Both the position numbers and the translations under genes were made by a program. Below the pieces are notes generated by a model. That model did not search any database, was not told the DNA's origin, and saw only the letters and a program-made list of their open reading frames with translations. DNA of 64,000 nucleotides from Sphingorhabdus sp. 109 (GTDB taxonomy: Bacteria; Pseudomonadota; Alphaproteobacteria; Sphingomonadales; Sphingomonadaceae), in contig NZ_LR732707.1 of assembly GCF_902506555.1 (NCBI RefSeq), positions 3,460,422-3,524,421 of the forward strand, in the 5' to 3' direction. Positions 1,006-49,335 of this stretch are shown here, one piece after another. The first letter of the stretch is position 1. Every line of letters begins with the position of its first letter.

Positions 1006-1014
1006 TTGCCAAAT

Positions 1015-12829: not shown

Positions 12830-12845
12830 CATCGGAAACTTTGAA

Positions 12846-15625: not shown

Positions 15626-15638
15626 GGGTCAGGACTCA

Positions 15639-17522: not shown

Positions 17523-17658
17523 AATTCATCTCCATCTTGCATCGAATCGGATGAGAACATAAATAGAACATACAGCTGTAGGAAAGCGTTTTCTTACGTG
17601 TTGAAGAGGGGAGGCTGCCGGGAAGGGGAGAACTGGCGCAGATGCAAGGAACTCCTCG
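17523..17658. promoter_or_regulatory. Divergent slt/primase intergenic region (right copy)
   Basis: Spacer between the truncated transglycosylase gene and the intact primase gene. It is nearly identical to 689-824 (four differences seen). It includes the purine-rich leader at 17,603-17,636 and AAGGA before the primase ATG. Its conservation above that of the adjacent coding sequence suggests a constrained control region. Confidence 0.65.
17603..17636 (+). promoter_or_regulatory. Purine-rich leader motif (primase)
   Basis: Reads GAAGAGGGGAGGCTGCCGGG and ends AGAACTGG, 22 bases before the primase start. It belongs to the family of leaders also seen at 18,588, 22,974, 26,359, 29,758 and 49,483, of which it is the most diverged member; a copy lies at 769-802. 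Confidence 0.5.
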
Positions 17659-33097: not shown

Positions 33098-33430
33098 ATG
33101 ACCAACCATATTTGTTTACAAACCTATCTTTCTTATCCGCTTGCACAGTGGGTCAGATCGGAAGCTGATGACCACGGCGAATGTGTCAGCGTATTCATTC
33201 GCGATCTTGTCATGGCGGCATATATTGCGCAGGATGAAGGTCATAATGATACTCTAAAAGGCCTCGACAAAGCCCGCGAGATTGTATTTTCCTCCGTAGC
33301 GCTTGATGCCATTTTAAGCGCCCACCCGGACAGCTCACTTCGGCAAAAAACCCATGATGCATATGGTCGTCGCTTACAGCGATTGGGGCTTGCTCCAGCC
33401 TCTTCGAATGGAGGCCGTGATGAAGCGTAA
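33098..33430 (+). CDS. Small putative ribbon-helix-helix relaxosome protein
   Basis: 110 residues. The first 50 residues (LSYPLAQWVRSEADDHGECV, SVFIRDLVMAAYIAQD) fit a ribbon-helix-helix pattern of a short strand followed by two helices, as in TrwA/TraY-type accessory proteins; the similarity is weak and judged by eye. It overlaps the coupling-protein gene by 11 bases and stands next to the oriT candidate, a typical place for such a factor. Confidence 0.6.
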   Translation: MTNHICLQTYLSYPLAQWVRSEADDHGECVSVFIRDLVMAAYIAQDEGHNDTLKGLDKAREIVFSSVALDAILSAHPDSSLRQKTHDAYGRRLQRLGLAPASSNGGRDEA

Positions 33431-35693: not shown

Positions 35694-35736
35694 AACCTGC
35701 GCGGTGGAGGGCGCGTCCAAATGATGGGAATTGACT

Positions 35737-38664
35737 ATGCTCTCTGCCTCAAATGTTCGCTCTGCGGGCGGCGCTGCAACTTATTTTGCGGCGGATAACT
35801 ATTATACCAAAGCTGATGCCGACCGGTCCGGTCAGTGGATTGGAGAAGGAGCGGAGCGGTTAGGTTTAAAAGGTCAAGTAGATGCGCCAGCCTTTGAAGC
35901 TCTGCTGCGCGGTGAATTGCCAAATGGCGAGCGAGTGGGCAGCGATAAACAATATCACCGCGCCGGAACCGATCTTACCTTCTCGCTACCCAAAAGCTGG
36001 TCGCTGATCGCTCTGGTTGGCGGCGATAAAAGGATTATCGATGCGTACCGGACAGCGGTCACAGATACGCTGCAATGGGCCGAGAAAAATGTCGCCGAAA
36101 CGCGGGTTTTTTCCCGAGGCAAGATCAAGCCCATTGGAACGGGCAATCTGACGATTGGACTGTTTCAGCATGACACCAATCGCAATTCTGAACCCAATGT
36201 TCATTTTCACGCGGTTGTCGCCAATGTGACGCAAGGCCCGGACGCAAAATGGCGGGCGCTGCATAATGACAAGCTCTGGTCGAACAACACGCTTCTAAAT
36301 AGCATGACGATGGCGCGCTTTCGTCTTGAAATCGAAAAGCTTGGCTATCAGCCTGCCCATCAGGGCAAGCACGGTAATTTTGAAGCCGCAGGTATATCGC
36401 GCGAAGCGGTTATGGCCTTTTCTACGCGCCGACAGGAGGTACTTGATGCGCGCCGGGGACCAGGACTGGAAGCTGGCAAGATTGCCGCTCTGGCAACGCG
36501 CGCACCCAAAGAAGCCATAAAGGACAGGGATGCCTTGTCTGCAACATGGCAGGAAGCTGCAAAGGCGATGGAGCTCGATCTTGGCGGATTGATCGACAAA
36601 GCCAATATTCGCGCAGCAGGACTGGAGATTGATCAAAACCCCAATCTATCACTGGCGCAAAAAGGAATGATTTTTCTCAGGGCGTTTGCAGAAAAAATTC
36701 AAGGATTTGGGCCAAAGCCCTCCGCAGATCCTTTGGTGCCAGCGCATATCCTCAATAAACCCCGCGAAGAGATAGCCGCAGCGCAGGCGGCCGCTTCAGC
36801 CATTCGCCATCTGAGCCAGCGCGAAGCAGCATTTGGGGTATATGATGTTTATAAGACTGCTTTGGATTTTGGCCTCCCGACATCCATTGCTCATGTTGAA
36901 CGCCGCGTCAGGGCACTTGTCAGGGAAGGTGAGCTTGTTCGGGGCAAAGGACGCGACCGGGATTTTGTCACCACGCGCGATGCCTTGCAGATCGAGCAGC
37001 GCATAATTGGACAGGTGGAAGCGGGCAGGGGCAAGGCGGAGCCGCTTTTGTCATCAGAATTGGCTGGCGAGCAGTTGCAGGCGGTCGCGGGTCTCAATTT
37101 TGGGATGACACTTAACAAAGGCCAGGAATCCGCCGGCCAGATGATATTATCATCGTCCAATCGCATTATCGCGGTGCAGGGCATTGCAGGGGCAGGCAAA
37201 AGCAGCCTTCTCAAACCTGTCTCGCAGCTTCTTGGCGAGAATGGCAAAACGGTTCTGGGTCTCGCCGTCCAGAATACGCTCGTCCAGATGCTCGAACGCG
37301 ATACCGGGATTGCGTCGATGACCTTGGCGCGCTTCATTGGAAGCCACAAAAACCTCCTCAAGGAGGGAGCCGATAAAAAGGCTCTTACGGAAGCCAAAGC
37401 CGCCATGAAAAACCATGTGCTGGTTCTCGACGAGGCCTCGATGGTCTCCAATGTTGAAAAAGAAAAACTGGTCCGGCTCGCAAACCTGCTCGAGGTCGAC
37501 CGTCTGGTTATGATCGGGGACAAGAAGCAGCTGGGTGCTGTCGATGCCGGCAAGCCCTTCGCGCTTGTGCAAGCCTCGGGCATTGATACCGCAAAAATGA
37601 TCACCAATTTGCGCGCGCGTGATAAAATATTACGCCGCGCGCAATATTCAGCCCAGGCCGGAAATATCGGCGAGGCTATGTCCTATTTGAAAGACCATAT
37701 TACCGAAACCAAAGAGGGTAGCGCCCTAATCGCCGCCGAACGCTGGTTAGCGCTTTCTCCACAAGACCGGCAATCCACCGCCATCTATGCATCAGGACGA
37801 GCGCTGCGCACAGCCGTCAATGAAGCGGTCCAGGCCGGGCTTAAACAAAACGGTGAACTGGGAAAACGAGGGCAAAAACTGGACACCTTCTCCCGCGTCA
37901 ACAGCACCCGCGAGGAACTGCGCTATATTCACAGCTACAAACCCGGCATGATGATTGAACTTAAAGCTCCGGACAGAAGTCAGCGCCTTGGCAAGGGGCA
38001 ATATGATGTGGTCTCGGTCGATGAGCGCGCAAAGCAGCTTGTCCTGAAAGATCGTGGGGGCAGGGAGCGGAGCTTTCAGGTGAGCAAGCTTCGCGCAAAT
38101 GCATCTGAAGACCAGATCGCTCTCTATGAAAAGAAGCAGCTCGATATTTATGCGGGTGATAAAATTCGCTGGACCGACAGCGATCACAAACGCGGGTTGT
38201 TCAACGCGGATCAGGCAAATATTACAGCAATTGATGCTGGGCATGTTCACTTGCGAACATCTTCCGGCATCGAGCATCGTCTGCCCCATAGCGATCCCAT
38301 GCTAAAACGTATTGATCTGGCTTACGCGCTCAATGCGCATATGGCGCAGGGGCTTACTTCTGATCGCGGGATTGCGGTCATGGATAGCCGCGAGCGCAAT
38401 CTTTCCAACAAGCAGACATTTCTGGTTACGATTACGAGATTGCGGGATGGTTTGACGCTCATCGTTGATAACCGCGAGAAACTGGAAGCAGCAGTCGAGA
38501 AAAATGACGGCGCAAAAAGATCGGCGCTTGAAGTGACACAGCGTCTCGGCAAAGCCGCAGCGACTGGGCTTGCGAAAGGAAATGAAATTGCGCCCAAAGA
38601 ACCGCAAAAGGACCAGCGAGAACTTGAAAAAGAACACAGCAAGCCGTTGGATATGGGGATTTAG
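35737..38664 (+). CDS. traI: MobF-family conjugative relaxase/helicase (TraI/TrwC)
   Basis: 975 residues. Residues 1-300 form the relaxase: tandem Tyr in YFAADNYYTK, and the metal-binding histidines in HDTNRNSEPNVHFHAVV. It cuts oriT and stays joined to the 5' end. The C-terminal part is an SF1B helicase of the RecD/TraI type: GIAGAGKSSLLKPV (Walker A, about 481), VLDEASMVSNVEKE and GDKKQLGAVDAGKPFALVQ, with YALNAHMAQGLTSDRGIAVM near the end. It follows the coupling-protein gene after 43 bases. I chose the ATG at 35,737 over the TTG two codons upstream. Confidence 0.92.
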   Translation: MLSASNVRSAGGAATYFAADNYYTKADADRSGQWIGEGAERLGLKGQVDAPAFEALLRGELPNGERVGSDKQYHRAGTDLTFSLPKSWSLIALVGGDKRIIDAYRTAVTDTLQWAEKNVAETRVFSRGKIKPIGTGNLTIGLFQHDTNRNSEPNVHFHAVVANVTQGPDAKWRALHNDKLWSNNTLLNSMTMARFRLEIEKLGYQPAHQGKHGNFEAAGISREAVMAFSTRRQEVLDARRGPGLEAGKIAALATRAPKEAIKDRDALSATWQEAAKAMELDLGGLIDKANIRAAGLEIDQNPNLSLAQKGMIFLRAFAEKIQGFGPKPSADPLVPAHILNKPREEIAAAQAAASAIRHLSQREAAFGVYDVYKTALDFGLPTSIAHVERRVRALVREGELVRGKGRDRDFVTTRDALQIEQRIIGQVEAGRGKAEPLLSSELAGEQLQAVAGLNFGMTLNKGQESAGQMILSSSNRIIAVQGIAGAGKSSLLKPVSQLLGENGKTVLGLAVQNTLVQMLERDTGIASMTLARFIGSHKNLLKEGADKKALTEAKAAMKNHVLVLDEASMVSNVEKEKLVRLANLLEVDRLVMIGDKKQLGAVDAGKPFALVQASGIDTAKMITNLRARDKILRRAQYSAQAGNIGEAMSYLKDHITETKEGSALIAAERWLALSPQDRQSTAIYASGRALRTAVNEAVQAGLKQNGELGKRGQKLDTFSRVNSTREELRYIHSYKPGMMIELKAPDRSQRLGKGQYDVVSVDERAKQLVLKDRGGRERSFQVSKLRANASEDQIALYEKKQLDIYAGDKIRWTDSDHKRGLFNADQANITAIDAGHVHLRTSSGIEHRLPHSDPMLKRIDLAYALNAHMAQGLTSDRGIAVMDSRERNLSNKQTFLVTITRLRDGLTLIVDNREKLEAAVEKNDGAKRSALEVTQRLGKAAATGLAKGNEIAPKEPQKDQRELEKEHSKPLDMGI

Positions 38665-38687
38665 ATGATCTCAGGGCAAACCTCTGA

Positions 38688-39323
38688 TCAAAGCGCGCGA
38701 CCAAACCAAAGCACGCGGCCTGCGATATGGACCGTGCTGCGATCAATATCCTCCCAGGTCGGATAGGTCGGGTTGTCGCTGGCAATGGTAATGAACGGGC
38801 TATCGGGCCTTAGTGCAATGCGTTTGACCACCAGCGTATCATCGATCCGCATAACATAAACACCATCGCGCAGCCGCGAACCATGGTCAGAGGCATCCAC
38901 CAGAACGTCATCGCCGTCCGACAGGGTTGGTTCCATGGAATCGCCCATAACGCGGACCACAGAGAGGCTGACGCCCCTAGCCGGAGTCAGTTTGCGCAGC
39001 CAGCGTTCATCGAACGAAAAACGCGTTTTCCTATCCTCGCTTGTCGCCAGAGCGCCATGTCCTGCAGAAACATTGACATCGAGTACGGGGACTTCGACCA
39101 TGCCGTCACTGCCAGTTGGCGGCGGCCCGCCCAATAGTTGTTCGTCAATACCGTAAAAGCTCGCCAGCCTAAGTCTGTCCTCAGGGTCCAGCTTGCGCGG
39201 TGTACCGCGCTTTATGAACTGCTGGATATAAGCTGCATTACGGCCAAGCATTTTTGAAAGACCGGAATAATCATCCCCGTTTTCGCGGATCAACCGATCC
39301 AGAGTTTCTCGTACATCATCCAT
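38688..39323 (-). CDS. LexA/CI-like self-cleaving repressor (XRE-S24)
   Basis: 211 residues from the ATG at 39,323. The N-terminal HTH (YSGLSKMLGRNAAYIQQFIK) is followed by a peptidase S24 domain with the catalytic Ser in MGDSMEPTLSDGDDV and Lys in TLVVKRIALR. Such repressors cut themselves when RecA is activated, so SOS damage would release the genes they hold. It is convergent with the relaxase gene and divergent from a small gene, with two palindromes in between. It might control mobilisation or transfer in the manner of the SetR/CI repressors of other mobile elements (inference). Confidence 0.85.
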   Translation of the reverse strand: MDDVRETLDRLIRENGDDYSGLSKMLGRNAAYIQQFIKRGTPRKLDPEDRLRLASFYGIDEQLLGGPPPTGSDGMVEVPVLDVNVSAGHGALATSEDRKTRFSFDERWLRKLTPARGVSLSVVRVMGDSMEPTLSDGDDVLVDASDHGSRLRDGVYVMRIDDTLVVKRIALRPDSPFITIASDNPTYPTWEDIDRSTVHIAGRVLWFGRAL

Positions 39324-39347
39324 CTTTTGTGCCTTTTGACCCCTCAA

Positions 39348-39361
39348 TAGGAATTATCCTA
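39348..39361. promoter_or_regulatory. Palindromic operator 1 of the S24 repressor
   Basis: TAGGAATTATCCTA: perfect TAGGA/TCCTA half-sites with a 4-base centre, 25 bp upstream of the repressor ATG. The TTCCTA/TAGGAA-type half-site is shared with the second operator. Confidence 0.65.
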
Positions 39362-39375
39362 GACAATATGCAATC

Positions 39376-39388
39376 TTCCTACTAGGAA
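39376..39388. promoter_or_regulatory. Palindromic operator 2 of the S24 repressor
   Basis: TTCCTACTAGGAA: a perfect palindrome of 6-bp arms around one base, about 28 bp centre to centre from operator 1, in front of the divergent gene at 39,432. Confidence 0.65.
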
Positions 39389-39431
39389 CATAACAAGAAC
39401 ACAAGCAATTTATGATTCGAGGAGGCCTCAT

Positions 39432-39644
39432 ATGAAACTGTTGGATCGTATCGAAAAGCATCTCAAGCAGACACATATGTCGCCGACGCGGTTTGGCAGG
39501 CGCGCTGTCGGTGATCCGCGGTTTGTTCTGGATTTGAGGGAAGGGCGTAGGCCGCGGGCTAGGACGTTGAGGAGGGTGGAAGCCTACTTGGCTAGTTCCG
39601 ATGAGAAGACCCGAGACGAGAACATTGTTCCGTCGACAAGTTAG
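39432..39644 (+). CDS. Small basic protein divergent from the repressor
   Basis: 70 residues, strongly basic in the middle (FVLDLREGRRPRARTLRRVE). The layout (LLDRIEKHLKQTHMSPTRFG, then GDPRFVLDLREGRRP) suggests a small XRE-like DNA-binding protein of the kind common in sphingomonads. Its position opposite an S24 repressor with two operators in between recalls a Cro-like partner. AGGAGG precedes the ATG. Confidence 0.6.
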   Translation: MKLLDRIEKHLKQTHMSPTRFGRRAVGDPRFVLDLREGRRPRARTLRRVEAYLASSDEKTRDENIVPSTS

Positions 39645-39704: not shown

Positions 39705-40406
39705 TTACATCCGCTTGAGGGTTAAGCGGCCAGCCGTATTCATCGCTCGCCGCCATTGACGTTCTGTCCAGAAAGTCCCTTCAAGAATATCTCTCTTATA
39801 GTCGTAGGACAGGCACGCAGACGCGCTGAATTCCGGATCATCCGCCTGATTGTCGGTGTCGTTAGTTTGATCGTAGAAATAGCATAGCGATGACGGCTGA
39901 CCTTCGCTCTTCTTGCGAGGTATGACAATATTAGTCTGAGATTCTTTGATGGGAGTATCCTGTCTCGGATTTGTCACGGTGATTTTGATCGACCACCAGC
40001 TTTGCTCGATCTCGGCTTTGAGGCCCACCTGCATCAACGGCTCCAAATCATTCTGATCGCAGGATTTGATATCGAAAGAACGTCGCCCGTCTTTAGCAGC
40101 CTCCAAAATCTGTTCCTGACGTGACCAATTGCTCTCCAGGAGCATTTCCCATTCACCGTTTAAATCAGGGAAAATCTTGTCATTCAGATCTGGAATGAAC
40201 GGGATTTTGGCGCTCCACGACCATATTTTTCGCCAGATCGGATTGAATGCAAAACCAAGCAAAATTACCCAGACAATGCCGGGAATAGCAAGCAATCTGA
40301 CCTCGAATCCAAAAGCGTCCGTTGCCAACTCGATTACGAGGAAAACCGTCAAGGTCAGGAACGAAATCAAGTAGGTCAATGACCTGAGCGGGAAAATTTT
40401 GTACAT
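39705..40406 (-). CDS. cap15: CBASS effector, Cap15-like (2TM plus beta-barrel)
   Basis: 233 residues. Two transmembrane helices lie at the N-terminus (about 10-28 and 35-52). A soluble beta-rich domain follows that opens with PDLNGEWEMLLESNW and contains IEQSWWSIKITVTNP, LCYFYDQTND, CLSYDYKRDILEGTFWTER and GRLTLKRM. These positions match the S-2TMbeta/Cap15 pattern, in which a cyclic dinucleotide binds the barrel, the protein oligomerises and the inner membrane is disrupted. It is transcribed away from the cyclase gene across a 78-bp spacer, whereas CBASS effectors are usually co-directional. Recognition is by pattern, not by search. Confidence 0.75.
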   Translation of the reverse strand: MYKIFPLRSLTYLISFLTLTVFLVIELATDAFGFEVRLLAIPGIVWVILLGFAFNPIWRKIWSWSAKIPFIPDLNDKIFPDLNGEWEMLLESNWSRQEQILEAAKDGRRSFDIKSCDQNDLEPLMQVGLKAEIEQSWWSIKITVTNPRQDTPIKESQTNIVIPRKKSEGQPSSLCYFYDQTNDTDNQADDPEFSASACLSYDYKRDILEGTFWTERQWRRAMNTAGRLTLKRM

Positions 40407-40484
40407 ATTTTGTTCACGTCCCTTGAAATTGGCTAATTATGCACCAAGTGGATTGGAAAAGCACGAATTTTTGAGGATTTGCCT
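40407..40484. promoter_or_regulatory. Divergent CBASS promoter region
   Basis: Spacer of 78 bp from which the effector is read leftward and the cyclase-Cap2-Cap3 operon rightward. GAGG stands eight bases before the cyclase ATG. Any shared control of effector and cyclase must lie here. Confidence 0.55.
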
Positions 40485-41675
40485 ATGACGCTTGCCAACG
40501 CTCACCCGATCTTTGTCGGCCTGAAGAAAAACCTCAGCTATCTGGCACAACTCAACATTGAAGATGAAGAGCATCACAAGCTGATGGAGGCGCGAACGAT
40601 CATCAGGAAAGCGTTGCGTGACGCATCATCAAGACTAGAAAATGAAAAACGCTTCTGGCGTGACTCGACTGTTTTCGCGGCGGCAAAACAAGTCGCCGAA
40701 ACAGTAGCGGTCAAATTTCTGATGCAAGGCAGCTTCGCATATCGAACATTAAACTCGCCCGCTAAGCCGAACTGCCAAGAAATCGATCTTGATGACGGTA
40801 TGTATGTACCCGTTCGATTTATGCAGGACAGCCATCCGGCTTTGGCAGCTGGATCCCTTTTCACATTTGTTGAGGAAACGTTGAGCCCAGTATGCAATGA
40901 AAATGGGTGGGAGCTTGACAGTTCAAAGAACACCTGCGCGCGTGTTCGACTTTGGAAAGGGGCACATGTTGATATTCCGATTTATTCGGTCCCTGAAGAC
41001 AAGTATCGGTTGATGAAGAGTGCAATCGCTGATGCGCGGATGGCGTCGATATCTTTTACGGCCGACAAGTTCCCATCAATGGCCGCGATACCAACCAATT
41101 TGGTGATGCTGGCGCAGCGTGATGGGAAATGGATTCAGTCTGATCCCAAGCAGCTTCACGATTGGGTGGAAGCCCGCTCTGCGCGCTATGGACCAGTCTT
41201 TCGCCGTCTTTGCAGGTTCTTCAAAGGATGGCGCGATCATACATGGGAAAATTCGCCACTGTCATCGATCTGCTTGATGTGCGCGATAGACGCTGCCTTG
41301 ATTGAACTCGGCGGCAATCCGGTTGATGACCGCGATGATATGCAAATTATGGAAGTGGCCAAGCTTCTCCCTGACATTTTCCGAGGAGAGATCAACAACC
41401 CGGTCGTCGAGGGGAGTTGTCTCAACGGCTGGAGCGATGCTGATCGAAACGAAATATTAAAGTCAACCGAAGCGCTTGCCGATGAAATGGAGGGCGCGCT
41501 CGAACGTACAGGCCATCCCGATATCGTGATTGATCACCTTCGAAACGTCTTTGGTCGCCGTATTCCGAACCGTCCTGATATTATTACGATTGCCAATGAT
41601 ACTGCATCAAGCGTTCGCGCTTTTCCGGCAGCAACTGTTCCAACACCCAAAATTATCAATTCCAACTCAGGGTGA
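40485..41675 (+). CDS. cdnA: CD-NTase (DncV-like cyclic dinucleotide synthase)
   Basis: 396 residues. Catalytic residues: QGSF (81-84) of the nucleotidyltransferase G-S motif, DLD (101-103) in EIDLDDGMYVP, and Asp163 in HVDIPIY. The DDGxYxP and HxDIPxY contexts are those of Vibrio DncV (clade A), whose product is 3'3'-cGAMP, so that is the likely signal here. The product cannot be proven from sequence. The ATG at 40,485 is preferred because GAGG lies at the right distance. Its stop overlaps the Cap2 start (TGATG). When phage infection is sensed, the product would open the Cap15-like effector. Confidence 0.87.
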   Translation: MTLANAHPIFVGLKKNLSYLAQLNIEDEEHHKLMEARTIIRKALRDASSRLENEKRFWRDSTVFAAAKQVAETVAVKFLMQGSFAYRTLNSPAKPNCQEIDLDDGMYVPVRFMQDSHPALAAGSLFTFVEETLSPVCNENGWELDSSKNTCARVRLWKGAHVDIPIYSVPEDKYRLMKSAIADARMASISFTADKFPSMAAIPTNLVMLAQRDGKWIQSDPKQLHDWVEARSARYGPVFRRLCRFFKGWRDHTWENSPLSSICLMCAIDAALIELGGNPVDDRDDMQIMEVAKLLPDIFRGEINNPVVEGSCLNGWSDADRNEILKSTEALADEMEGALERTGHPDIVIDHLRNVFGRRIPNRPDIITIANDTASSVRAFPAATVPTPKIINSNSG

Positions 41676-43354
41676 TGAACCGGCGAGAGGCGCTGGGTAA
41701 GATTAACGCAACGCTAAAGGAACAAGGCTTCAGCGAAAAATCAGCGATTGTACTAGAATTCGAAGGACGGATAAGCGTTCATGGCAAACCAATCGATGTT
41801 GCGATTGAAATTCCTGACATTACATTTGTTAAACTTCCCAAAGTGAAATTGAAGGACCCGGCGCAACTCGACCCGGAAATCGTGGGGCATCTTTTTAACC
41901 GGGGCGACGGCGATTCAGGTATCTGCTATGCATCTGCTGTGGGACTACCCCTCGATATCTATGACCCGGGTGGATCGGTCTTACGCGTGCTAGAGCAAGC
42001 GAAAGTGGCAATGGAGGTTAATTACAAAGGCCGCGGTGTTGCAGAGGTCGCAGCTGAATATCAGGACTACTGGCGCGATGGTATTGAGTCATTTCGAATT
42101 CTGATCAAACGACCAACGAGTGATACTGCGACCCTCAAAACTAACTTTTATCGATTCAAAGCGAAAGGGATGACGCCGTTTTTGGGGTTACGAGATGTTG
42201 CGGAGTTTGGCGGCTTTTCGGCTGAAGAATTTTCCCATGGCCTACTCATTTTTAGCAATGAACCGCTTTCTCCCGTTGGAAAAATCAAGGTGCCACTCAC
42301 ACTTGAGCAATTTGAAATCTGGTTCCGAGGCCAACCTGGCTTCACGGACGCCGAGTATAGCCAAGCATTCGCTGCACTGGCAGCACGCAACATTGTGGCG
42401 ATAGACGCACCAAATTGCGTTTTGGGCGTCCGGCTGGATTTTCCAAGGGGACTAGAAATAGCCCTAAACACGATAAAAACTAGGAAGGCGAAGATCCCGG
42501 AGTTGATTGCCAATCGCAAATCAGAAATAAATCTAACGCGTTTTGGTGGCTTTTGGTGTGATCAAAAGACTTTGGCCGAAAGGAATCTTGTAGGTATGAA
42601 CACTTTGGCTGGGAAAAAGATTGCTCTAATTGGATGTGGTACACTCGGGAGCCATCTGGCCAAATTTCTTGTCCAAAGCGGGGCCGGGTTTGATGCTCCG
42701 TTATACCTTTTTGATGGTCAAGGGCTATCAGCAGGCAACGTCGGTCGCCACTACCTTGGTATTGGACAAATAGACAAAGCTAAAGCAGAAGCCCTGTGTG
42801 ATGAATTGAAGCGGTTTCATCCGGATATCGACGTTCGTGCGATTTGCCGAGACGTATTCGATGACTGGAATACGGCAAAAGATTGCGACTTGATTATTGA
42901 TGCGACCGGAGACTGGAATACCCAAAATGCTGTCAATGAAGCCTTTCTGAACGGCGAAGACGTCAAAGCTGAGGCGGTCTTATATAGCTGGATTTGTGGA
43001 AACGGAGCGGCCGCCCAAGGTTTCCTGAGCATCGTTGGCGATGGTTATTGTTTTCGCTGTCTCCGCCCGGATGCGGGCAAGAATTGGCGCTATACTGCTC
43101 TCAAGCCCAAATATGAGGAAATTATTGAGGAGGCTACTTGCGGGGACGGTGCATATTATCCTTATTCGGTAGCTGCACCGGCAATCGCCGCAGGACTATC
43201 TACCGAAATGATATTGGGATGGGCAAATGGTAAGCCCGGATCACGGCTTAAGACAATCGTGATTGATCATGAACGGGGCGCAGAGCGGCAGCCCACAACA
43301 CCTTCGCCTGCTGCGGCCTGCCCAGCCTGCGCTGCGAGGGATAGTGATGATTGA
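41675..43354 (+). CDS. cap2: CBASS Cap2: fused E2/E1 ubiquitin-transfer-like enzyme
   Basis: 559 residues. The N-terminal E2-like part has Cys84 in DSGICYASAVG. The C-terminal ThiF/E1 domain shows IGCGTLGSHLAKFLVQSGAG (ATP-binding, from about 319), FDGQGLSAGNVGRHYLG, LIIDATGDWNTQNAVNEAF and a second catalytic-type Cys489 in EEATCGDGAYYPYS. In type II CBASS, Cap2 joins the C-terminus of the cyclase to a target, which primes it. The middle of the protein (about residues 150-300) is less familiar and may be a linker specific to this branch. It overlaps Cap3 by eight bases. Confidence 0.87.
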   Translation: MNRREALGKINATLKEQGFSEKSAIVLEFEGRISVHGKPIDVAIEIPDITFVKLPKVKLKDPAQLDPEIVGHLFNRGDGDSGICYASAVGLPLDIYDPGGSVLRVLEQAKVAMEVNYKGRGVAEVAAEYQDYWRDGIESFRILIKRPTSDTATLKTNFYRFKAKGMTPFLGLRDVAEFGGFSAEEFSHGLLIFSNEPLSPVGKIKVPLTLEQFEIWFRGQPGFTDAEYSQAFAALAARNIVAIDAPNCVLGVRLDFPRGLEIALNTIKTRKAKIPELIANRKSEINLTRFGGFWCDQKTLAERNLVGMNTLAGKKIALIGCGTLGSHLAKFLVQSGAGFDAPLYLFDGQGLSAGNVGRHYLGIGQIDKAKAEALCDELKRFHPDIDVRAICRDVFDDWNTAKDCDLIIDATGDWNTQNAVNEAFLNGEDVKAEAVLYSWICGNGAAAQGFLSIVGDGYCFRCLRPDAGKNWRYTALKPKYEEIIEEATCGDGAYYPYSVAAPAIAAGLSTEMILGWANGKPGSRLKTIVIDHERGAERQPTTPSPAAACPACAARDSDD

Positions 43355-43814
43355 TGGCGTTTTGTTCGATCACCAAGTTTTGGAAATTATGCTGAAAGCG
43401 ACACGGCGCTATTCGCCCTTAGAAGCGGGTGGTTTGTTGCTGGGATTTCGAAAAGGGCGGCATCTCCATGTCATTGAGGCTACCACCCCTTATGCATGGG
43501 ACAGCCAGAGCAGAGTTTCGTTCATACGTTCACCCAAAGCACATCGAATGCGTGCGCTACGACTTTGGAAAGAGTCACATAAGCGCGTAGATTGGCTTGG
43601 CGAATGGCATAGTCATCCGGGTTTTTCTCCAAACCCGTCGGGTATTGATAATAGGAACTGGAAACAGCTTGTAAGGCATCACAAAGCACCAATGGTGTTT
43701 CCGATTTGCAACGGACGAACAACGGCTATTTGGCTTCAGCAATCAGTTAGATTTCGGCCTATTCGCTTCGAATTCACTCATCAAGACGCAAATGGTCAGC
43801 TGTTCGCTTCCTGA
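43347..43814 (+). CDS. cap3: CBASS Cap3: JAMM/MPN isopeptidase
   Basis: 155 residues from the ATG at 43,347 with GAGGG in front. The JAMM zinc-protease motif is complete: Glu26 in LEAGGLLLG, then HSHP (His88, His90), Ser98 and Asp101 in SPNPSGID. Cap3 cuts the cyclase from its conjugates and so reverses Cap2. Together with Cap2 and the cyclase it makes this a full type II CBASS operon. The C-terminal half continues in beta strands (MVFPICNGRTTAIWLQQ). Confidence 0.88.
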   Translation: MIDGVLFDHQVLEIMLKATRRYSPLEAGGLLLGFRKGRHLHVIEATTPYAWDSQSRVSFIRSPKAHRMRALRLWKESHKRVDWLGEWHSHPGFSPNPSGIDNRNWKQLVRHHKAPMVFPICNGRTTAIWLQQSVRFRPIRFEFTHQDANGQLFAS

Positions 43815-44089
43815 CTTCTCGTTTCAGAAACATCTTCGAATAAGGAAGGTCTAAACAGGGCTCTAGCGCTGTGTAAGTCCCAGACTTTTCGTTTGTTGAT
43901 CAAAGATTTGGGAGTTGACGAAGGTGGAAGATCAATTGGCAAATATCGACATTAAAATGCACAGATCAGGATCAAGATCTGCCCGGAAAAAACCGACGGA
44001 GTTACATGCTGCCGATTGACCGAGTTGTATTATTAAATTGAACAGTTACAGTCGGTTTCTTTGTAGTTCGTTAGGGGTGGATTCTTGGA
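43815..44089. other. Spacer between CBASS and HXS operons
   Basis: AT-rich spacer of 275 bp. I looked for a small gene like hxsD here and found no frame with a convincing start. It probably carries the HXS promoter; AGGGGTGG lies 13 bases before the ATG at 44,090. Confidence 0.5.
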
Positions 44090-45502
44090 ATGGAGGAATT
44101 GGACGGTCTTCCGAATTTAAGATCGCGCACAGTTTCCGATCGTCACATTTTTGCAAATGAAGAAGGTCGTTTTTTTAAAGGTCAACATGACCTGCTGAGC
44201 CGGATCGGTAGCAATGAGTTATCTGATCAGGAACTGAAGTTCCTGCAAAAGCGACATCTTATAAAAAGCAGTAAGTTGGTAAAGCATGCGTCGCTATTCG
44301 CTCAGGCACGTCGCAAGACAAACGTTGAAGGTTTGGAATATCTTATTTTGGTCCCCACGTTACGTTGTAACCTCGCTTGCAGCTATTGTCAGGTTTCGCG
44401 GGCCAATGAGAATGCCGAAGGCTATGATTGGGATGAAGCGACACTCGGACAAATAACTGGCTTGATCAAACAGTTTTCAGGGCGGTCACTCAAGATCGAG
44501 TTTCAGGGCGGTGAACCCACATTGAGACCGGATCTTATAAGTGCAGTCCTAGACGCAGGATCACATATTCCCGACATGACAGCCGTGATATGTACCAATT
44601 TGCAGCGACTTGATGAAGAAATCTTGACTATTTTCAATAGAGAGAATGTACAAATTAGCACGTCGTTGGATGGTTCGTTAATTACTCACAAGGCTCAAAG
44701 AACTCAAGATGATGCATCCACTTCACAATTCGAAAGAAACTTGAGTTTAGTTCTCAAGCGATATGGCCCAGGCAAAATTTCCGCGTTACCAACTGTCAAT
44801 CCGAATGATCCTCCCGAGATTGATAGCCTTGTAGAGGCATTCGTTTCGCGCGGTTTTACGAGCATTTATCTGCGACCAATCAACTATCAAGGCTTTGCCA
44901 GAAAACAACACCCGGAATCCATCGAACAATCAGGTCATTGGGGTGCGTATTATTCAAAATTCATCCACAGGCTCATTGCGAGAAATTGGGACAATCGCGA
45001 TCAAGTGATTGAAGAGACTTATTTCAGTCATTGTTTGAATCGAATTTTCAAGCCAGGCCTTGATAGACATGTGGACCTGCGTAGCCCCAATCCCGTCGGC
45101 GTAGATTATATTGTCGTTGATTTTGATGGCAAGATTTACCCAACAGATGAGGCTCGCATGCTTTCACGATCGGGGATTATTGATTTGACCATAGGCGATA
45201 TAGCTACCGGCTGGGATTCTCCAGAACGACGAGCACTCAACGAAGCATCGACAAATGCAGATGATCCAGATTGTCAAAATTGCGTCTACCAGCCCTATTG
45301 TGGACGCGACATAATCGACGATATTTCAAGATATGGCCGGATCGACCTACGCAGACACGAGACAAACTTCTGCAAGCGCCACATGAGTATTTTCGATTTG
45401 GCTTTTTCTCTGATTTATTCAAATGAAGATGCAGTCCAATATTCGTTGCGTCACTGGCTAGGGTTGAGTGGAGATTCAATTACATTGGGCGAGTCAATAT
45501 GA
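44090..45502 (+). CDS. hxsB: His-Xaa-Ser system radical SAM maturase HxsB
   Basis: 470 residues. The radical SAM cluster motif CNLACSYC (Cys93, Cys97, Cys100) is followed by GGEPTLRPDL and by the SAM-binding beta strands of the TIM barrel. The C-terminal part has further cysteines, DCQNCVYQPYCG and CKRH, that resemble a SPASM/Twitch auxiliary cluster domain, the hallmark of enzymes that modify ribosomally made peptides. The pairing with HxsC and an HXS-repeat protein identifies the family. It overlaps hxsC by four bases (ATGA). The chemistry of HXS enzymes is not known to me. Confidence 0.85.
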   Translation: MEELDGLPNLRSRTVSDRHIFANEEGRFFKGQHDLLSRIGSNELSDQELKFLQKRHLIKSSKLVKHASLFAQARRKTNVEGLEYLILVPTLRCNLACSYCQVSRANENAEGYDWDEATLGQITGLIKQFSGRSLKIEFQGGEPTLRPDLISAVLDAGSHIPDMTAVICTNLQRLDEEILTIFNRENVQISTSLDGSLITHKAQRTQDDASTSQFERNLSLVLKRYGPGKISALPTVNPNDPPEIDSLVEAFVSRGFTSIYLRPINYQGFARKQHPESIEQSGHWGAYYSKFIHRLIARNWDNRDQVIEETYFSHCLNRIFKPGLDRHVDLRSPNPVGVDYIVVDFDGKIYPTDEARMLSRSGIIDLTIGDIATGWDSPERRALNEASTNADDPDCQNCVYQPYCGRDIIDDISRYGRIDLRRHETNFCKRHMSIFDLAFSLIYSNEDAVQYSLRHWLGLSGDSITLGESI

Positions 45503-46575
45503 TCCCGCTAATGCTTCCCGCAGTTTCGGATGCCGAGAAACCATTCGTAACTCGATTGTCGAAAAACCGGACAGATTCTCCATGGGAAAGTTGGTGCATC
45601 GAAAGTAGCGAGAGTCAATCGGTGTTCAGCGGCGAGAACGGATTGTTCCAGATCGTTGGACCCGGAATTCAAGACTTGGATGGTGATATCGTAATTGTGA
45701 CGCCTGCTGCGGGCAATGCAGAGCGCATTATAAGGGCTGGTTCCACTCAAAATTCACTGTTAGTCACCGAACGCTGTGATCAACTATGTGTGATGTGCTC
45801 CCAGCCGCCAAAGAAAACCCATCACGACCGCTTCGGTCTATTTGTTCAGGCCTGTCTTTTAGCTGACAACGGCATAACAATCGGAATTACCGGCGGGGAA
45901 CCGACGTTGTATAAACAGGAGGTTTTTCAACTTCTCGAAACGGTGTTGAAAGCACGTCCGGATTTGAAATTTCATGTCCTTACCAATGGCCAACATTTTG
46001 AAACAAGCGACATCAGTCAATTGCGTCAGGAACTGTTCCGAAAGGTTGTTTGGGGAATCCCGTTATATTCCAATGATGCCGCTGAACATGATGAAATCGT
46101 TGCTAAAACAGGAGCGTATGAGCGATTGCATCAGAGTTTTGATACGTTGCTTTTGTCCGGCGCTAAAATTGAACTTAGAACTGTTGTGCTTCAAACCAAT
46201 CTCAATTCGTTCCCCGCTCTCGCGCGGCATATTGCAGGCTTGCTGCACTTTATCGAGCAATGGTCCGTGATGCAGCTAGAAAATATCGGTTTTGCAAGAA
46301 ATAGATGGGACTCTCTTTACGTCGACTTTCGTAAGAGTTTCAATCCAATTGCCCAATCACTGGATGTCGCTTCTTTATTCGGTATACCAACAAAGCTATT
46401 CAACGTGCCGCTTTGTCATTTGCCAGAATTTCATCGCAATTTTGCTGTAAATTCAATATCTGACTGGAAACAGCGTTTTGGGGAAAAGTGTTTGATGTGC
46501 AGCAAGAAGGAAACTTGTTCTGGATTTTTTGAATGGCATCCTGCCGAAATGCTCGATGAAGTTTCTCCATTATGA
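45499..46575 (+). CDS. hxsC: His-Xaa-Ser system radical SAM maturase HxsC
   Basis: 358 residues. The cluster motif is CDQLCVMC (Cys93, Cys97, Cys100), then GITGGEPTLYKQEVF and FHVLTNGQHFE. Near the C-terminus lies another cysteine group, CLMCSKKETC, possibly for a second cluster. The first 80 residues are unlike common radical SAM proteins. It overlaps hxsB and hxsA by four bases each, so the three are made in step. Its partner HxsB is a second radical SAM enzyme, and the pair probably acts on the same target protein. Confidence 0.85.
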   Translation: MIPLMLPAVSDAEKPFVTRLSKNRTDSPWESWCIESSESQSVFSGENGLFQIVGPGIQDLDGDIVIVTPAAGNAERIIRAGSTQNSLLVTERCDQLCVMCSQPPKKTHHDRFGLFVQACLLADNGITIGITGGEPTLYKQEVFQLLETVLKARPDLKFHVLTNGQHFETSDISQLRQELFRKVVWGIPLYSNDAAEHDEIVAKTGAYERLHQSFDTLLLSGAKIELRTVVLQTNLNSFPALARHIAGLLHFIEQWSVMQLENIGFARNRWDSLYVDFRKSFNPIAQSLDVASLFGIPTKLFNVPLCHLPEFHRNFAVNSISDWKQRFGEKCLMCSKKETCSGFFEWHPAEMLDEVSPL

Positions 46576-47147
46576 GTAAACGAAAGTTTCTGATTTCCTC
46601 GTTGGCAATGGCCGGCATTATGCCTTTTCCAACTGCACAATCTGCTGCAACTAACAATATCGCTTCCGGTGGAAAAGATCCTGAAGGCGATGCTGTTATC
46701 AAGAGGTTTGCACAAGAACATTCTTTCCAGCTAGCACAGCATAGATCCCACTCAAGCCATTCGTCGCATAGTAGCCATCGGTCCGGGGCCAGCGGTAGGG
46801 TTAAGTCTCCAGTATATACACCTCCCCCGATCCGCCGTCCGAAAACGACCCCTGCGCCTAAGCCATCGCGCAATACGAGGAGTACGCCGCCAAGTTCGGT
46901 GCTTCCTCAATCTCCCGCAATTGCTCCAAATACGTTCTTTAAACCCCAGGATGACGCGATAAAAAACGTTGTAAGACGCGTTCAGATTGGCCTGAAATCC
47001 TATGGATACTATACCGGGTTAATCGACGGAATTGCAGGTTCGGGAACTCGCGCTGCGTTGGTTAAATTCCAGACAGACTTTGACCTCAAGGTAACAGGCA
47101 CAATCACTCCAGAAGTTTTGGATGCATTTAAAATTGTTGCGGAATAG
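46572..47147 (+). CDS. hxsA: HxsA: His-Xaa-Ser repeat protein, putative target of modification
   Basis: 191 residues. An N-terminal signal peptide (MSKRKFLISSLAMAGIMPFP) is followed by the repeat HRSHSSHSSHSSHRS, five H-x-S units encoded at 46,740-46,784, then a Pro/Thr-rich linker and a C-terminal peptidoglycan-binding domain (VQIGLKSYGYYTGLIDGIAG, then LVKFQTDFDLKVTGTITPEV). The repeats use different Ser codons (TCC, AGC, TCG, TCA, AGT), which points to selection on the protein rather than DNA slippage. The His-rich strip could bind metal after modification. Its export and wall anchoring indicate that it acts in the periplasm. Confidence 0.87.
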   Translation: MSKRKFLISSLAMAGIMPFPTAQSAATNNIASGGKDPEGDAVIKRFAQEHSFQLAQHRSHSSHSSHSSHRSGASGRVKSPVYTPPPIRRPKTTPAPKPSRNTRSTPPSSVLPQSPAIAPNTFFKPQDDAIKNVVRRVQIGLKSYGYYTGLIDGIAGSGTRAALVKFQTDFDLKVTGTITPEVLDAFKIVAE

Positions 47148-47520
47148 AATTACTACTCATTTGATCGTGCTTCTCATTGGTGTCGCAATGGCCTGGGTAG
47201 CTATGCCGATTTGGCGTCAGGCAGTGATGTTTGCAAATCAATCGGAATATGGAGCGCTTGTGGAAAAATGCGACGTTGCCATGAGAGATCATTTACAAGC
47301 GCGGCAACGTAGCGCCCAAAGGTCTTCGGATGATGTTGGCAGCGAACTCTATTCAGCTGAAGTTGGATTGCTCATCTGTCAGGACTACGATTTATATCAG
47401 AAACGTTTGATGCAGTGGGGTTTGAGGGAAAATGAGTTAGCTAAAATGCGATTGTTAGCCGTAGAAGAGCGAAGTACCGATCTGGAAGAAGTTGTCGCAA
47501 CCCATGAAATTCGATTTTAA
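47122..47520 (+). CDS. Small membrane-anchored HXS-associated protein
   Basis: 132 residues: an N-terminal membrane helix (HLIVLLIGVAMAWVAMPIW), then a soluble helical part with two cysteines (VEKCDVAM and LICQDYDLYQ) and WGLRENELAKMRLLAVEERS. It matches my recollection of the small protein family assigned to HXS loci (TIGR03982), which I cannot check. It overlaps hxsA by 26 bases and the MauG-like gene by 17. Possible electron-transfer or assembly partner. Confidence 0.7.
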   Translation: MHLKLLRNRITTHLIVLLIGVAMAWVAMPIWRQAVMFANQSEYGALVEKCDVAMRDHLQARQRSAQRSSDDVGSELYSAEVGLLICQDYDLYQKRLMQWGLRENELAKMRLLAVEERSTDLEEVVATHEIRF

Positions 47521-48760
47521 GTTACTTTTCTACCTGCTGCTCATTCCATTGACCAGCGCTTGTGAACAACAATCATCTGGAAGCTATACTCAAGAAAAAA
47601 TGGGTCCGGCAACGGACACGCTGAGAATCGAAACTTTGCGGAAAGCCTCAATTCAAAATGGTTTTGTATCTGTTGGCGCACTGCAATCGAAGACAGATAG
47701 TGCCAAACGTAGTATTGGCGGAAAGCTATTTGCTTCAAAAACGCTAAGTTTAAATGGCAATATTTCTTGCCAGGACTGCCATCTAGATAAATTCGGGTCA
47801 GTCGACGGTCTGCCCAATGCAGTTGGTGCAGGTGCATCGGGCGAAGGCGGTGCTCGAATGGCAAGCGGTGGCCAGATTATTCCGCGCAATGTTTTGCCGC
47901 TTTGGGGGCGTGGCGGACCTAACTTTGATACTTTTTTCTGGGATGGCAAAGTACAATCTGAAAACGGGGTAGTGGTGAGCCAGTTTGGTGATTTTGCTCC
48001 ATCTTCTGACCCTTTGGTAGTGGCTGTGCACCTCCCTTTTGTAGAGCTTCGCGAAATGATAGCCGATACCCCGGAGGTTCGTAAAGACCTAGTGACGGAG
48101 GATGTTGGATCGGCAGAAGTGGTTTTCAATACACTTGCCGGTAGAGTCAGACAAGATCCAGACTTGGGCATTCAATTGGCAAAGGCTTACCAAAAACCGT
48201 TAGAAAACCTTACCTTTAGTGAAATCGGTGATGCTGTAGCTCAGTTCATTCGGCATAATTTCCGAGTTAAGAAAACGAAACTCCATCGGTTTGTATTTGA
48301 AAATGGCCCAATCACGCAAAATGAATTGAACGGCGGCATAACTTTCTATGGAAGAGGTCGATGTGCATCGTGTCACAACGGCCCGTACTTTTCGGATTTT
48401 GATTTCCATTCAATTCCATTTCCTCAATTAGGCTTTGGAAAAAACGGCTTTGGCAATGATGAGGGGCGTTACAATGTGACGTTTAACCCTTCTGATCGTT
48501 TTTTGTTTCGGACGCCACCTCTTTACAACGCGACCAAGACTTCTCCTTATGGCCATTCCGGATCGCTTCGAACTTTGGATGAGGCAATTGTCGCTCACTT
48601 TGATCCACTGAGAGTGGCGAACTTTCAAAAAATGAGCATCCAAGAGCGATCAAATTTTTACCGAAGAATGAAAGCTGCTCCCGAAGATACTGTCCCAACG
48701 ACATTATCCGATACTGAGGTCAAAGAACTGGTAGCGTTTATCTCAATGCTCGATTTTTGA
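47504..48760 (+). CDS. MauG-like di-haem cytochrome c peroxidase, lipoprotein
   Basis: 418 residues from the ATG at 47,504. A lipobox-like sequence, LTSAC, follows the signal helix. Two haem c motifs are present: CQDCH at about residues 87-91 and CASCHNG further on, with FTHHNFRVK-like and FRTPPLYNATKTSPYGHSGS regions as in bacterial di-haem peroxidases. The MauG branch of this family oxidises protein residues after translation, for instance making a tryptophan-derived quinone. Its place as the last gene of the operon suggests that it completes the modification of HxsA (inference). Confidence 0.85.
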   Translation: MKFDFKLLFYLLLIPLTSACEQQSSGSYTQEKMGPATDTLRIETLRKASIQNGFVSVGALQSKTDSAKRSIGGKLFASKTLSLNGNISCQDCHLDKFGSVDGLPNAVGAGASGEGGARMASGGQIIPRNVLPLWGRGGPNFDTFFWDGKVQSENGVVVSQFGDFAPSSDPLVVAVHLPFVELREMIADTPEVRKDLVTEDVGSAEVVFNTLAGRVRQDPDLGIQLAKAYQKPLENLTFSEIGDAVAQFIRHNFRVKKTKLHRFVFENGPITQNELNGGITFYGRGRCASCHNGPYFSDFDFHSIPFPQLGFGKNGFGNDEGRYNVTFNPSDRFLFRTPPLYNATKTSPYGHSGSLRTLDEAIVAHFDPLRVANFQKMSIQERSNFYRRMKAAPEDTVPTTLSDTEVKELVAFISMLDF

Positions 48761-48900: not shown

Positions 48901-49335
48901 CTATCCATCACAGCGGTGCGTCTTCCAATATTTGTCCCATCGCAGCGCCCAACCACCTTTAGTCATCGCACACGAAAGATCTCCAGATTTGGGTGATATG
49001 CACCAGGCAGCGGTTCGAGAACCCCCTGCGCGACCATCGGAACGGCAAATCATCTTGGGACCGGACACCAGGATATGTCCTTCTCTTGATTTTCCGGTGG
49101 GTTTTCCCACCAGTTTTACTAGTGCATCCCTTGCGGCAATAGCGCTCGACTCGGGGCAAGGATGACCGCTTGTGCAAGAACCATCCATCTCACGCGCAGC
49201 GATGCCAGACAATCTCACTCTAGGTCCTTCCGCACACCAGATAGGTCCATCACCGTCCCAGACACGGATGGGCGTACATTCAAAGGTTTCGCCAGCCGCG
49301 ACGATGCTTGCGCCAAGTAAAAGTAGTTCAATCAA
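48901..49335 (-). CDS. Secreted thermonuclease-like (SNase) protein
   Basis: 144 residues. Begins with a TTG after an in-frame stop codon, giving a short signal sequence (ELLLLGASIVAAG). The SNase pattern is visible in IRVWDGDGPIWC, RVRLSGIAAREMD and the C-terminal GWALRWDKYWKTHRC. Six or more cysteines indicate a disulfide-bonded periplasmic form. Such small nucleases are frequent in conjugative regions of sphingomonads, where they may clear DNA at the cell surface; the role is inferred. Confidence 0.75.
   Translation of the reverse strand: MIELLLLGASIVAAGETFECTPIRVWDGDGPIWCAEGPRVRLSGIAAREMDGSCTSGHPCPESSAIAARDALVKLVGKPTGKSREGHILVSGPKMICRSDGRAGGSRTAAWCISPKSGDLSCAMTKGGWALRWDKYWKTHRCDG

What the first reader, a model, noticed from the sequence alone, without database searches (positions are those of the whole stretch)
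44090..48760. Plasmid-borne His-Xaa-Ser (HXS) system with two radical SAM enzymes and a MauG-like haem protein
Seen: five overlapping genes, two with CxxxCxxC radical SAM motifs, a secreted protein with five H-x-S units and a peptidoglycan-binding domain, a small membrane protein, and a di-haem lipoprotein with CQDCH and CASCH. Known: HxsA/B/C are named families whose chemistry is, to my knowledge, unsolved; MauG relatives oxidise protein side chains. Inference: radical SAM enzymes first alter the His/Ser strip in the cytoplasm and the haem enzyme finishes it in the periplasm, giving a metal- or redox-active wall protein. The usual small partner HxsD is not found in or near the operon. Location on a conjugative plasmid implies a selectable benefit.
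Basis: partly seen in the sequence, partly recalled or inferred. Interest (0 to 1): 0.8.

Follow-up and report, generated by a model that had tools for sequence, protein, structure and literature searches.

The report
HXS peptide operon with di-haem enzyme
A bacterium of the order Sphingomonadales carries an unstudied set of genes that seems to rewrite a repeated histidine-serine stretch of a cell-wall protein; such sets sit on mobile DNA, sometimes beside virus-defence genes, and this one has an extra two-haem enzyme and lacks a usual partner.

Summary
The five genes are real: all five proteins pass NCBI's curated cut-offs as HxsB, HxsC, HxsA, TIGR03982 and the HXS-associated MauG-like protein. 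HxsD is absent from the operon and, by its profile, from the genome. The plasmid claim fails: the window lies in a 3.56-Mb chromosomal contig, among conjugation genes. The TIGR03982+MauG pair is a cassette behind hxsA in 10 of 64 HXS loci. The MauG-like protein has His where solved relatives have Met or Tyr (10 of 10), and this HxsA has no Trp or Cys, so a TTQ-type product on HxsA is unlikely. The H-x-S strip suggests triceptide-like His(i)-Ser(i+2) cross-links (inferred). New here: the place behind hxsA is interchangeable. Near-identical HXS cores at one integration site carry DUF6119 or Gabija, parting exactly at the hxsA stop; in one further pair the break lies inside hxsA. Eleven of 64 loci have a recognised multi-gene defence system within 8 kb, including CBASS beside this operon; but HsdM (0 of 17) and OLD-TOPRIM (1 of 15) hits gave no clear enrichment near HXS. 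Chemistry and function remain untested.

The parts
44090..45502 (+). hxsB, radical SAM/SPASM maturase (470 aa)
   Evidence: TIGR03978 386.6 bits, cut-off 370; C93, C97, C100 and the SPASM-like C395, C398, C404, C428 are invariant in 20 aligned HxsB
45499..46575 (+). hxsC, second radical SAM maturase (358 aa), overlaps hxsB by 4 bases
   Evidence: TIGR03977 308.1 bits, cut-off 267.9
46572..47147 (+). hxsA, exported substrate (signal by eye): five H-x-S units, linker, peptidoglycan-binding domain; no Trp, no Cys
   Evidence: TIGR03979 123.7 bits, cut-off 121.65; PF01471; sequence; strip
47122..47520 (+). TIGR03982 gene: N-terminal membrane helix (by eye) plus a helical hairpin with two invariant Cys (C50, C86); starts 26 bases inside hxsA
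   Evidence: TIGR03982 80.6 bits, cut-off 40; invariant in 9 of 9 and in a tenth; AlphaFold2 model, mean pLDDT 77.4
47492..48760 (+). MauG-like di-haem protein (probable start ATG 47504), lipoprotein-like N-terminus, haem motifs CQDCH and CASCH, predicted second axial His H369
   Evidence: TIGR03981 380.0 bits, cut-off 340; PF03150; alignments
43910..44089 (+). hxsB upstream region, conserved with the nearest relative L011 (inside a 767-base blastn piece at 78.6%); no HxsD ORF; possible promoter/leader
   Evidence: blastn window 43910-44673 to L011 9822-10584; ORF checks
39705..43814 (.). neighbouring type II CBASS: Cap15-like 2TM effector (39705-40406, -), CD-NTase (40479-41675), Cap2 (41672-43354), Cap3 (43341-43814); in L011 a ResIII/DEAD helicase gene lies there instead
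   Evidence: L011 comparison

Best explanation
This is a member of the HXS (His-Xaa-Ser) post-translational modification systems, of a subtype hxsB-hxsC-hxsA-TIGR03982-TIGR03981 without HxsD, carried in chromosomal DNA that holds conjugation genes (shown). Most likely mechanism (inferred): in the cytoplasm HxsB and HxsC make radical C-C cross-links between each His and the Ser two residues on, as triceptide enzymes do for His/Tyr/Phe/Trp(i) to residue i+2. This turns the five H-x-S units into a rigid strip. HxsA is exported and held on peptidoglycan by its C-terminal domain. In this subtype TIGR03982 (membrane-anchored, two cysteines) and the di-haem protein act at the envelope as a cassette attached to HxsA. 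The di-haem protein probably works as a peroxidase or electron-transfer partner with a bis-His second haem, not as a TTQ-forming MauG. Rough odds: HXS membership 0.97; H-to-S(i+2) cross-link 0.45; cassette working on or with HxsA 0.6; second haem bis-His 0.7.
For: Membership. Strip: in 48 HxsA (some closely related) I took the longest in-phase run of H-x-(S or T), 277 units in all; every third residue was Ser and never Thr, while the free middle residue varied (S 115, R 91, A 42, Y 11, others). The pattern itself fixed His and allowed only Ser or Thr at the third place, so the count shows Ser over Thr and a free middle residue, no more. Precedent for His(C2)-Cbeta(i+2) bonds (HaaB, YhhB, ScaB) and Phe-Cbeta(Ser) (MscB): PMC11002830, passages seen. 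HxsB gives sub-threshold matches to cyclophane-forming YhhB, AmcB, FxsB and XyeB and to DynA. Cassette: TIGR03982 and the MauG-like gene follow hxsA in 10 of 64 loci, even in a far relative (L135, HxsB 29% identical) where the small gene still overlaps hxsA. Sixth-ligand position: H369 aligns with Met of 3o5c and 1zzh and with Tyr of 6e1c and is invariant in 9 of 9 and in L135; that those residues are haem ligands is recalled. Against L011, protein identity is 64-82% with synonymous sites saturated in four of five genes, so the genes are kept.
Against: No chemistry of any HXS enzyme was found in the papers searched. HxsB is far from the characterised cyclophane families (48 bits or less against cut-offs of 370-450), so the cross-link is by analogy of motif only. 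The AlphaFold2 model of the di-haem protein failed (mean pLDDT 31.3), so the bis-His reading rests on alignment alone. MauG structures were matched by the profile but their alignment was not displayed. A lipoprotein-like cysteine is present in only 5 of 9 homologues. Cassette presence and HxsD loss do not track each other strictly.
Confidence: 0.5

Rival explanations
1. HXS is a modular anti-phage or anti-plasmid system: the modified wall protein is the constant sensor or barrier, and the gene behind hxsA is an interchangeable effector (here the di-haem pair; elsewhere patatin, trypsin-like protease, SIR2, DUF6119 and so on).
For: Close 3' neighbours on the same strand: patatin 15 bp (L042), trypsin-like 44 bp (L039), DUF6119 19-69 bp (L045, L049, L125, L127, L128, L145, by Pfam, annotation or sequence cluster), SIR2/PDC-S65 311 bp (L048), Gabija gajA+gajB 64-91 bp (L131, L132). 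Near-identical cores carry different 3' DNA: of eight pairs compared, five end within 3 bases of the hxsA stop (L045/L132, L125/L132, L045/L086, L125/L045, L126/L125); L125/L132 share 3612 bases at 97.7% and identity resumes at the integrase. Eleven of 64 loci have a recognised multi-gene defence system within 8 kb.
Against: Gabija, Thoeris, retrons and CBASS are known to work without HXS (recalled), so many neighbours may only share mobile DNA. In 24 HXS genomes HsdM lay within 10 kb of HXS in 0 of 17 hits and the OLD TOPRIM domain in 1 of 15. In one of the eight pairs (L127/L131) the break lies 336-372 bases before the hxsA end, in another (L087/L088) inside hxsA, and one pair (L133/L126) runs on. 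PADLOC has no model for the HXS genes beyond generic viperin matches. Neighbours scanned with PADLOC were hand-picked (38 proteins). Several loci have only metabolic, phage-tail or transposon neighbours (L086, L108, L110, L126).
Confidence: 0.25
2. Metal- or redox-active wall protein: the (modified) His strip binds copper, iron or haem, and the di-haem protein oxidises or reduces it.
For: Four to nine closely spaced His per HxsA strip; a CCP/MauG-family enzyme in the same operon in 10 of 64 loci; in Sphingobium pTK1 a siderophore receptor and a PepSY gene lie within 5 kb upstream.
Against: No metal transport gene among the named genes within about 6 kb of the window's operon or in the stretch of L011 scanned; 54 of 64 loci lack the di-haem cassette. 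Other redox partners were not looked for systematically.
Confidence: 0.2
3. Element-borne surface trait of the host, such as exclusion of other elements or phages by a modified wall protein, without a toxic effector.
For: HXS on conjugative or integrative DNA: 330 of 419 plasmid records with an HxsB match are typed conjugative; E. coli islands with integrase and relaxase genes; the window lies among coupling-protein, MOBF relaxase and T4SS genes.
Against: None of the HXS proteins matched a surface-exclusion family; whether all chromosomal HXS loci lie on conjugative DNA was not examined.
Confidence: 0.15

Closest known systems
HXS (His-Xaa-Ser) system of NCBIfam TIGR03976-TIGR03979 (HxsD, HxsC, HxsB, HxsA), with TIGR03981 and TIGR03982
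   Same: All five proteins pass curated cut-offs; same gene order B-C-A as annotated loci
   Different: No HxsD; the TIGR03982+TIGR03981 cassette is attached; beside a type II CBASS
HXS loci of Tritonibacter and Thioclava plasmids (L084, L085)
   Same: Same cassette hxsA-TIGR03982-MauG-like, annotated as such in the records
   Different: HxsB of L084 is 45% identical; the Thioclava hxsB is truncated
MauG / MbnH / BthA / bacterial di-haem cytochrome c peroxidases
   Same: PF03150, two CxxCH haem sites, FWDG region; profile matches to MauG structures
   Different: 56.3 bits to TIGR03791 against a cut-off of 443.85; His at the Met/Tyr ligand position
Triceptides (three-residue cyclophanes made by radical SAM enzymes such as HaaB, YhhB, MscB)
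   Same: Aromatic residue and partner two residues on, with a free middle residue; SPASM-type radical SAM enzyme
   Different: Two radical SAM enzymes; substrate is an exported peptidoglycan-binding protein; no bond shown; no match to those families at cut-off
Type II CBASS with Cap15 effector
   Same: Neighbouring genes 39705-43814
   Different: A separate system; in L011 the same place holds a helicase gene instead

Membership tests
HXS system | HxsB, HxsC and HxsA over curated cut-offs and adjacent | tested here: met
   order and overlaps
HXS system | HxsD present | tested here: not met
   no TIGR03976 match in the genome at E<=10; no ORF before hxsB. My HxsD profiles found one in 53 of 66 loci; it is also missing in L011, L084, L121, L122 but present together with the cassette in L054, L123, L124, so it is not obligatory
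HXS system | H-x-S strip in phase, exported, wall-binding domain | tested here: met
   export signal by eye only
HXS system | radical SAM modification of the strip | not testable with these tools
   needs mass spectrometry
MauG proper (TTQ-forming) | TIGR03791 over cut-off | tested here: not met
   56.3 bits, cut-off 443.85
MauG proper (TTQ-forming) | Tyr as sixth ligand of the second haem | tested here: not met
   His in 10 of 10 by alignment to Met/Tyr positions of solved relatives; MauG's own alignment was not displayed
MauG proper (TTQ-forming) | Trp-containing protein substrate in the operon | tested here: inconclusive
   window HxsA has no Trp, as 8 of 10 cassette-type HxsA; TIGR03982 has Trp but it is not invariant
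Triceptide (3-CyFE) pathways | C-C bond between residue i and Cbeta of i+2 | not testable with these tools
   motif agrees; precedent read in passages of PMC11002830
Conjugative plasmid | separate replicon | tested here: not met
   3.56-Mb contig; same in G024; left flank with genes read by eye as hemC, gpsA, tsaD
Known anti-phage system | PADLOC model for the HXS genes themselves | tested here: not met
   only generic viperin matches for HxsB and HxsC and one 11-bit match for the MauG-like protein
Defence-island gene | neighbourhood enriched in defence genes over comparable DNA | tested here: inconclusive
   11 of 64 loci with a recognised multi-gene system within 8 kb (hand-picked genes scanned) against 0 of 17 HsdM and 1 of 15 OLD-TOPRIM hits within 10 kb in 24 genomes; no matched cargo control

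The most novel reading that the evidence does not exclude
HXS is a modular envelope immunity system. A radical-SAM-stiffened His-Ser strip anchored in the cell wall is the constant part, and an interchangeable 3' cassette (patatin, protease, SIR2, DUF6119, or here a membrane protein plus a bis-His di-haem enzyme) is the variable effector. The cores travel on mobile DNA and exchange what follows at the hxsA stop codon.
Probability: 0.22. Interest if true: 0.9.

Novelty: new variant of a known kind. Interest (0 to 1): 0.58.

Why it matters
An HXS core close to the Klebsiella one covers at least 80% of the query in 147 of 5,426 complete E. coli genomes (154 with any match), and 317 Klebsiella plasmid records hold an HxsB match, yet no functional study turned up in the papers searched. 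An H-x-S substrate with a published chemical precedent makes the modification directly testable by mass spectrometry. The exchange of partners at the hxsA stop gives natural pairs of near-identical cores with different neighbours, a clean way to ask what the core does. The HxsD-less, di-haem subtype shows which part is dispensable and offers an enzyme with an unusual predicted ligand set.

Tried and rejected
Plasmid location: rejected. A hidden HxsD just upstream of hxsB: no suitable ORF. Caution: rhizobial HxsD-like genes are annotated only as 'hypothetical', so TIGR03976 alone may miss divergent forms. MauG-like gene replacing HxsD: rejected, because L054, L123 and L124 have both. TTQ/CTQ-like cofactor on HxsA: rejected for this protein (no Trp, no Cys). 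My note said that all nine cassette-type HxsA lack Trp; one search gives 8 of 10 (L085 and L123 have one).

AlphaFold2 of the di-haem protein with three sequences failed (mean pLDDT 31.3); no fold search was run on either model. TIGR03982 has no clear relative among solved structures (one hit, E 0.79). HxsB had no PDB match by phmmer at 1e-5. The one genome-contig scan gave one relative. Integrase genes lay within about 12 kb of HXS in three of 24 genomes (G990, G714, G586). The ends of the integrated element were not located; a tRNA-Thr beside a G+C drop is only a candidate. dS was saturated, so no dN/dS for four genes. Haft and Basu's paper on HXS is recalled; it is not held.

Full report
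Observation. One search gives five + strand ORFs that overlap in a chain: 44090-45502, 45499-46575, 46572-47147, 47122-47520 and 47492-48760. NCBIfam names all five as HXS parts, each over its curated cut-off: HxsB TIGR03978, HxsC TIGR03977, HxsA TIGR03979, TIGR03982, and the HXS-associated MauG-like TIGR03981. Pfam agrees on radical SAM (twice), PG_binding_1 and CCP_MauG. This is far beyond chance.

Setting. The window is part of a 3,564,916-base contig of a 3.62-Mb genome. The 104 kb from the window's start to near the contig end are 99.99% identical to a stretch of a 3.48-Mb contig of genome G024, apart from an inverted 15.9-kb segment. To the left, genes that I read by eye as hemC, gpsA and tsaD mark the chromosome. 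The operon lies between conjugation genes: a coupling protein and MOBF relaxase on one side, named by Pfam in the relative L011 and homologous to window 33293-39580, and a run of T4SS genes on the other (TraV by Pfam; the TraG-like 901-aa ORF by eye). So this looks like integrated conjugative DNA; its ends were not found. The host belongs to the same genus as a Sphingomonadales MAG (UBA2683) whose HxsB is 76% identical.

Neighbour. Directly upstream (275 bases between the genes) lies a type II CBASS: Cap15-like 2TM effector, CD-NTase, Cap2 and Cap3. In L011 the same place, between the relaxase region and hxsB, holds a 1107-aa ResIII/DEAD helicase gene instead, while HXS and the following two genes are kept. 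In these two elements HXS is the constant cargo and the neighbour changes.

Distribution (counts include the window's own genome). HxsB at E<=1e-50: 8 of 385 genomes of the class, 6 over the cut-off; 15 of 398 of the phylum, 14 over the cut-off. The MauG-like family over its cut-off: 1 of 398, the window's own genome, though 19 of 398 have weaker relatives at E<=1e-40. TIGR03982: 4 of 246 genomes of the order and 1 of 295 of another family of the class. A tblastn HxsB match at E<=1e-20 is in 419 of 72,556 plasmid records, 317 of them Klebsiella, 330 typed conjugative. The Klebsiella core matches 154 of 5,426 complete E. coli genomes, 147 of them over at least 80% of its length, all on chromosomes.

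HxsD. My HxsD profiles found a small gene near hxsB in 53 of 66 loci. The 13 without a hit are the window, L011, L084, L121 and L122 (all with the cassette and no candidate ORF); L037 and L135 (a candidate small ORF ends at the hxsB start); L129 and L142 (no candidate); L085 (hxsB truncated); L134 and L143 (hxsB at the edge of the fetched stretch); and L055 (a weak HxsB match only). HxsD is present together with the cassette in L054, L123 and L124. So HxsD is dispensable for the subtype, and the cassette does not simply replace it. The HxsB tree (56 rows) puts the window, L011, L121 and L122 in one supported clade with L037 and L129, which have no cassette within 600 bases. The cassette therefore comes or goes within close kin.

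The strip. In 48 HxsA proteins (some closely related) I took the longest in-phase run of H-x-(S or T). The 277 units all end in Ser, none in Thr; the middle residue is S 115, R 91, A 42, Y 11 and a few others. The pattern itself fixed the His and allowed only Ser or Thr, so this shows Ser over Thr and a free middle residue. A free residue between two fixed ones is what radical SAM triceptide enzymes act on. Passages of the review PMC11002830 report C2(His)-Cbeta(Ala) bonds at i,i+2 by HaaB and ScaB, His and Tyr to Arg by YhhB, and Phe-Cbeta(Ser) by MscB. I infer a His-Ser(i+2) cross-link. No paper found through searches reports HXS chemistry. PMC9062424 (passages) names HxsB and HxsC as putative maturases. 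PMC8446631 and PMC6537148 (passages) mention HXS among genes of mobile or island regions.

The cassette. TIGR03982 and the MauG-like gene follow hxsA in 10 of 64 loci; in the window the small gene starts 26 bases inside hxsA. The pair is kept in L135, an IMG/VR contig whose HxsB is 29% identical. TIGR03982 has a long N-terminal helix and a helical hairpin (AlphaFold2, mean pLDDT 77.4); C50 and C86 are invariant in 9 of 9 and in L135. The MauG-like protein keeps both haem sites and, in 10 of 10, a His (H369) where alignments show Met in 3o5c and 1zzh and Tyr in 6e1c. That the Met and Tyr are haem ligands is recalled knowledge. A bis-His second haem is thus predicted; the structure model of this protein failed. 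The window's HxsA has no Trp and no Cys, and 8 of 10 cassette-type HxsA lack Trp, which speaks against a TTQ-like product on HxsA.

The place behind hxsA. Same-strand neighbours differ widely: the di-haem cassette (10 loci), DUF6119 (6, by Pfam, annotation or sequence cluster; absent in L126), VWA and PP2C genes, mostly with a kinase and an SH3 gene, in rhizobia, patatin (15 bp), trypsin-like (44 bp), SIR2/PDC-S65 (311 bp), Gabija (64 and 91 bp), a retron II-A-like RT and NDT gene pair (512 bp; its RNA not checked), IetAS (143 bp, behind a truncated hxsA). The clearest case: L125 (E. coli chromosome, at ssrA) and L132 (IMG/VR) share 3612 bases at 97.7% identity, ending exactly at the last base of hxsA. 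L125 goes on with DUF6119 and L132 with gajA and gajB; identity resumes at the integrase. Of the eight pairs compared, five end within 3 bases of the hxsA stop. L127/L131 part 336-372 bases before the end of hxsA, L087/L088 inside hxsA, and L133/L126 run on. The E. coli tmRNA locus is a published defence hotspot (PMC10121019, passages).

Defence neighbourhood, for and against. Recognised multi-gene systems within 8 kb: CBASS in the window, L033 and L106; Gabija in L034, L054, L131 and L132; Thoeris in L046; retron II-A-like in L037; IetAS in L087 and L089. That is 11 of 64 loci, some of them related; L033 and L106 rest on the records' annotation and my phmmer (L033 only). I scanned only 38 hand-picked neighbour proteins with PADLOC besides ten window proteins, so the true number may be higher. 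Single-gene, partial or candidate cases: L048 (PDC-S65), L088/L115 (MkoC; only L088 scanned), L123 (MkoC-like), L038 (Cap2/Cap3-like at a contig end), L125/L128 (ABC three-component, by annotation). Against this: in 24 HXS genomes HsdM was within 10 kb of HXS in 0 of 17 hits and the OLD TOPRIM in 1 of 15. Some loci have only metabolic, phage-tail or transposon neighbours (L108, L110, L126, L086). Mobile DNA is rich in defence genes anyway, and no matched control with other cargo was made. I hold the immunity reading at about one in four to five.

Verdict. Its parts are known families; the chemistry and role are open. The added points are a concrete cross-link hypothesis for the strip, the predicted bis-His haem, and the exchange of what follows at the hxsA stop.

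Noticed in passing
39705-43814: Type II CBASS (Cap15-like 2TM effector, CD-NTase, Cap2, Cap3) directly upstream of hxsB; a ResIII/DEAD helicase gene lies there in L011.
   Followed up: yes
window 1-15900, 233-871, 17067-17705: A 15.9-kb segment is inverted between the window's genome and the near-identical genome G024; two SLT-domain gene stretches (86% identical) lie near its ends.
   Followed up: partly
L125 12343-16034 versus L132 3770-7791: At the ssrA site near-identical HXS cores are followed by DUF6119 in one and by Gabija in the other, parting exactly at the hxsA stop.
   Followed up: yes
L034 11130-15157; L112 17082-21105; L114 17093-21116: Rhizobial HXS operons are followed by VWA, PP2C, protein kinase and SH3-domain genes and preceded by an unnamed gene of about 380 aa without Pfam match.
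   Followed up: partly
L086 (Klebsiella pKPN-498): HXS core on an IncF plasmid between insertion elements and resistance genes, without the DUF6119 gene seen behind 3 of 4 E. coli cores read; 317 Klebsiella plasmid records hold an HxsB match.
   Followed up: no
L091 4643-4717 (C2 about 3405065): tRNA-Thr gene beside a fall in G+C (0.59 to 0.52), followed by a recombinase-like ORF (by eye): a candidate left end of the integrated element.
   Followed up: partly
L085 8950-9900; L087 10477-10752: hxsB of Thioclava p5 and hxsA of A. leguminum p1 are truncated, so these loci are probably decaying.
   Followed up: no
window 48901-49335: Thermonuclease-like ORF (by eye; no Pfam match) after the HXS operon, conserved in L011 and L121.
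   Followed up: no
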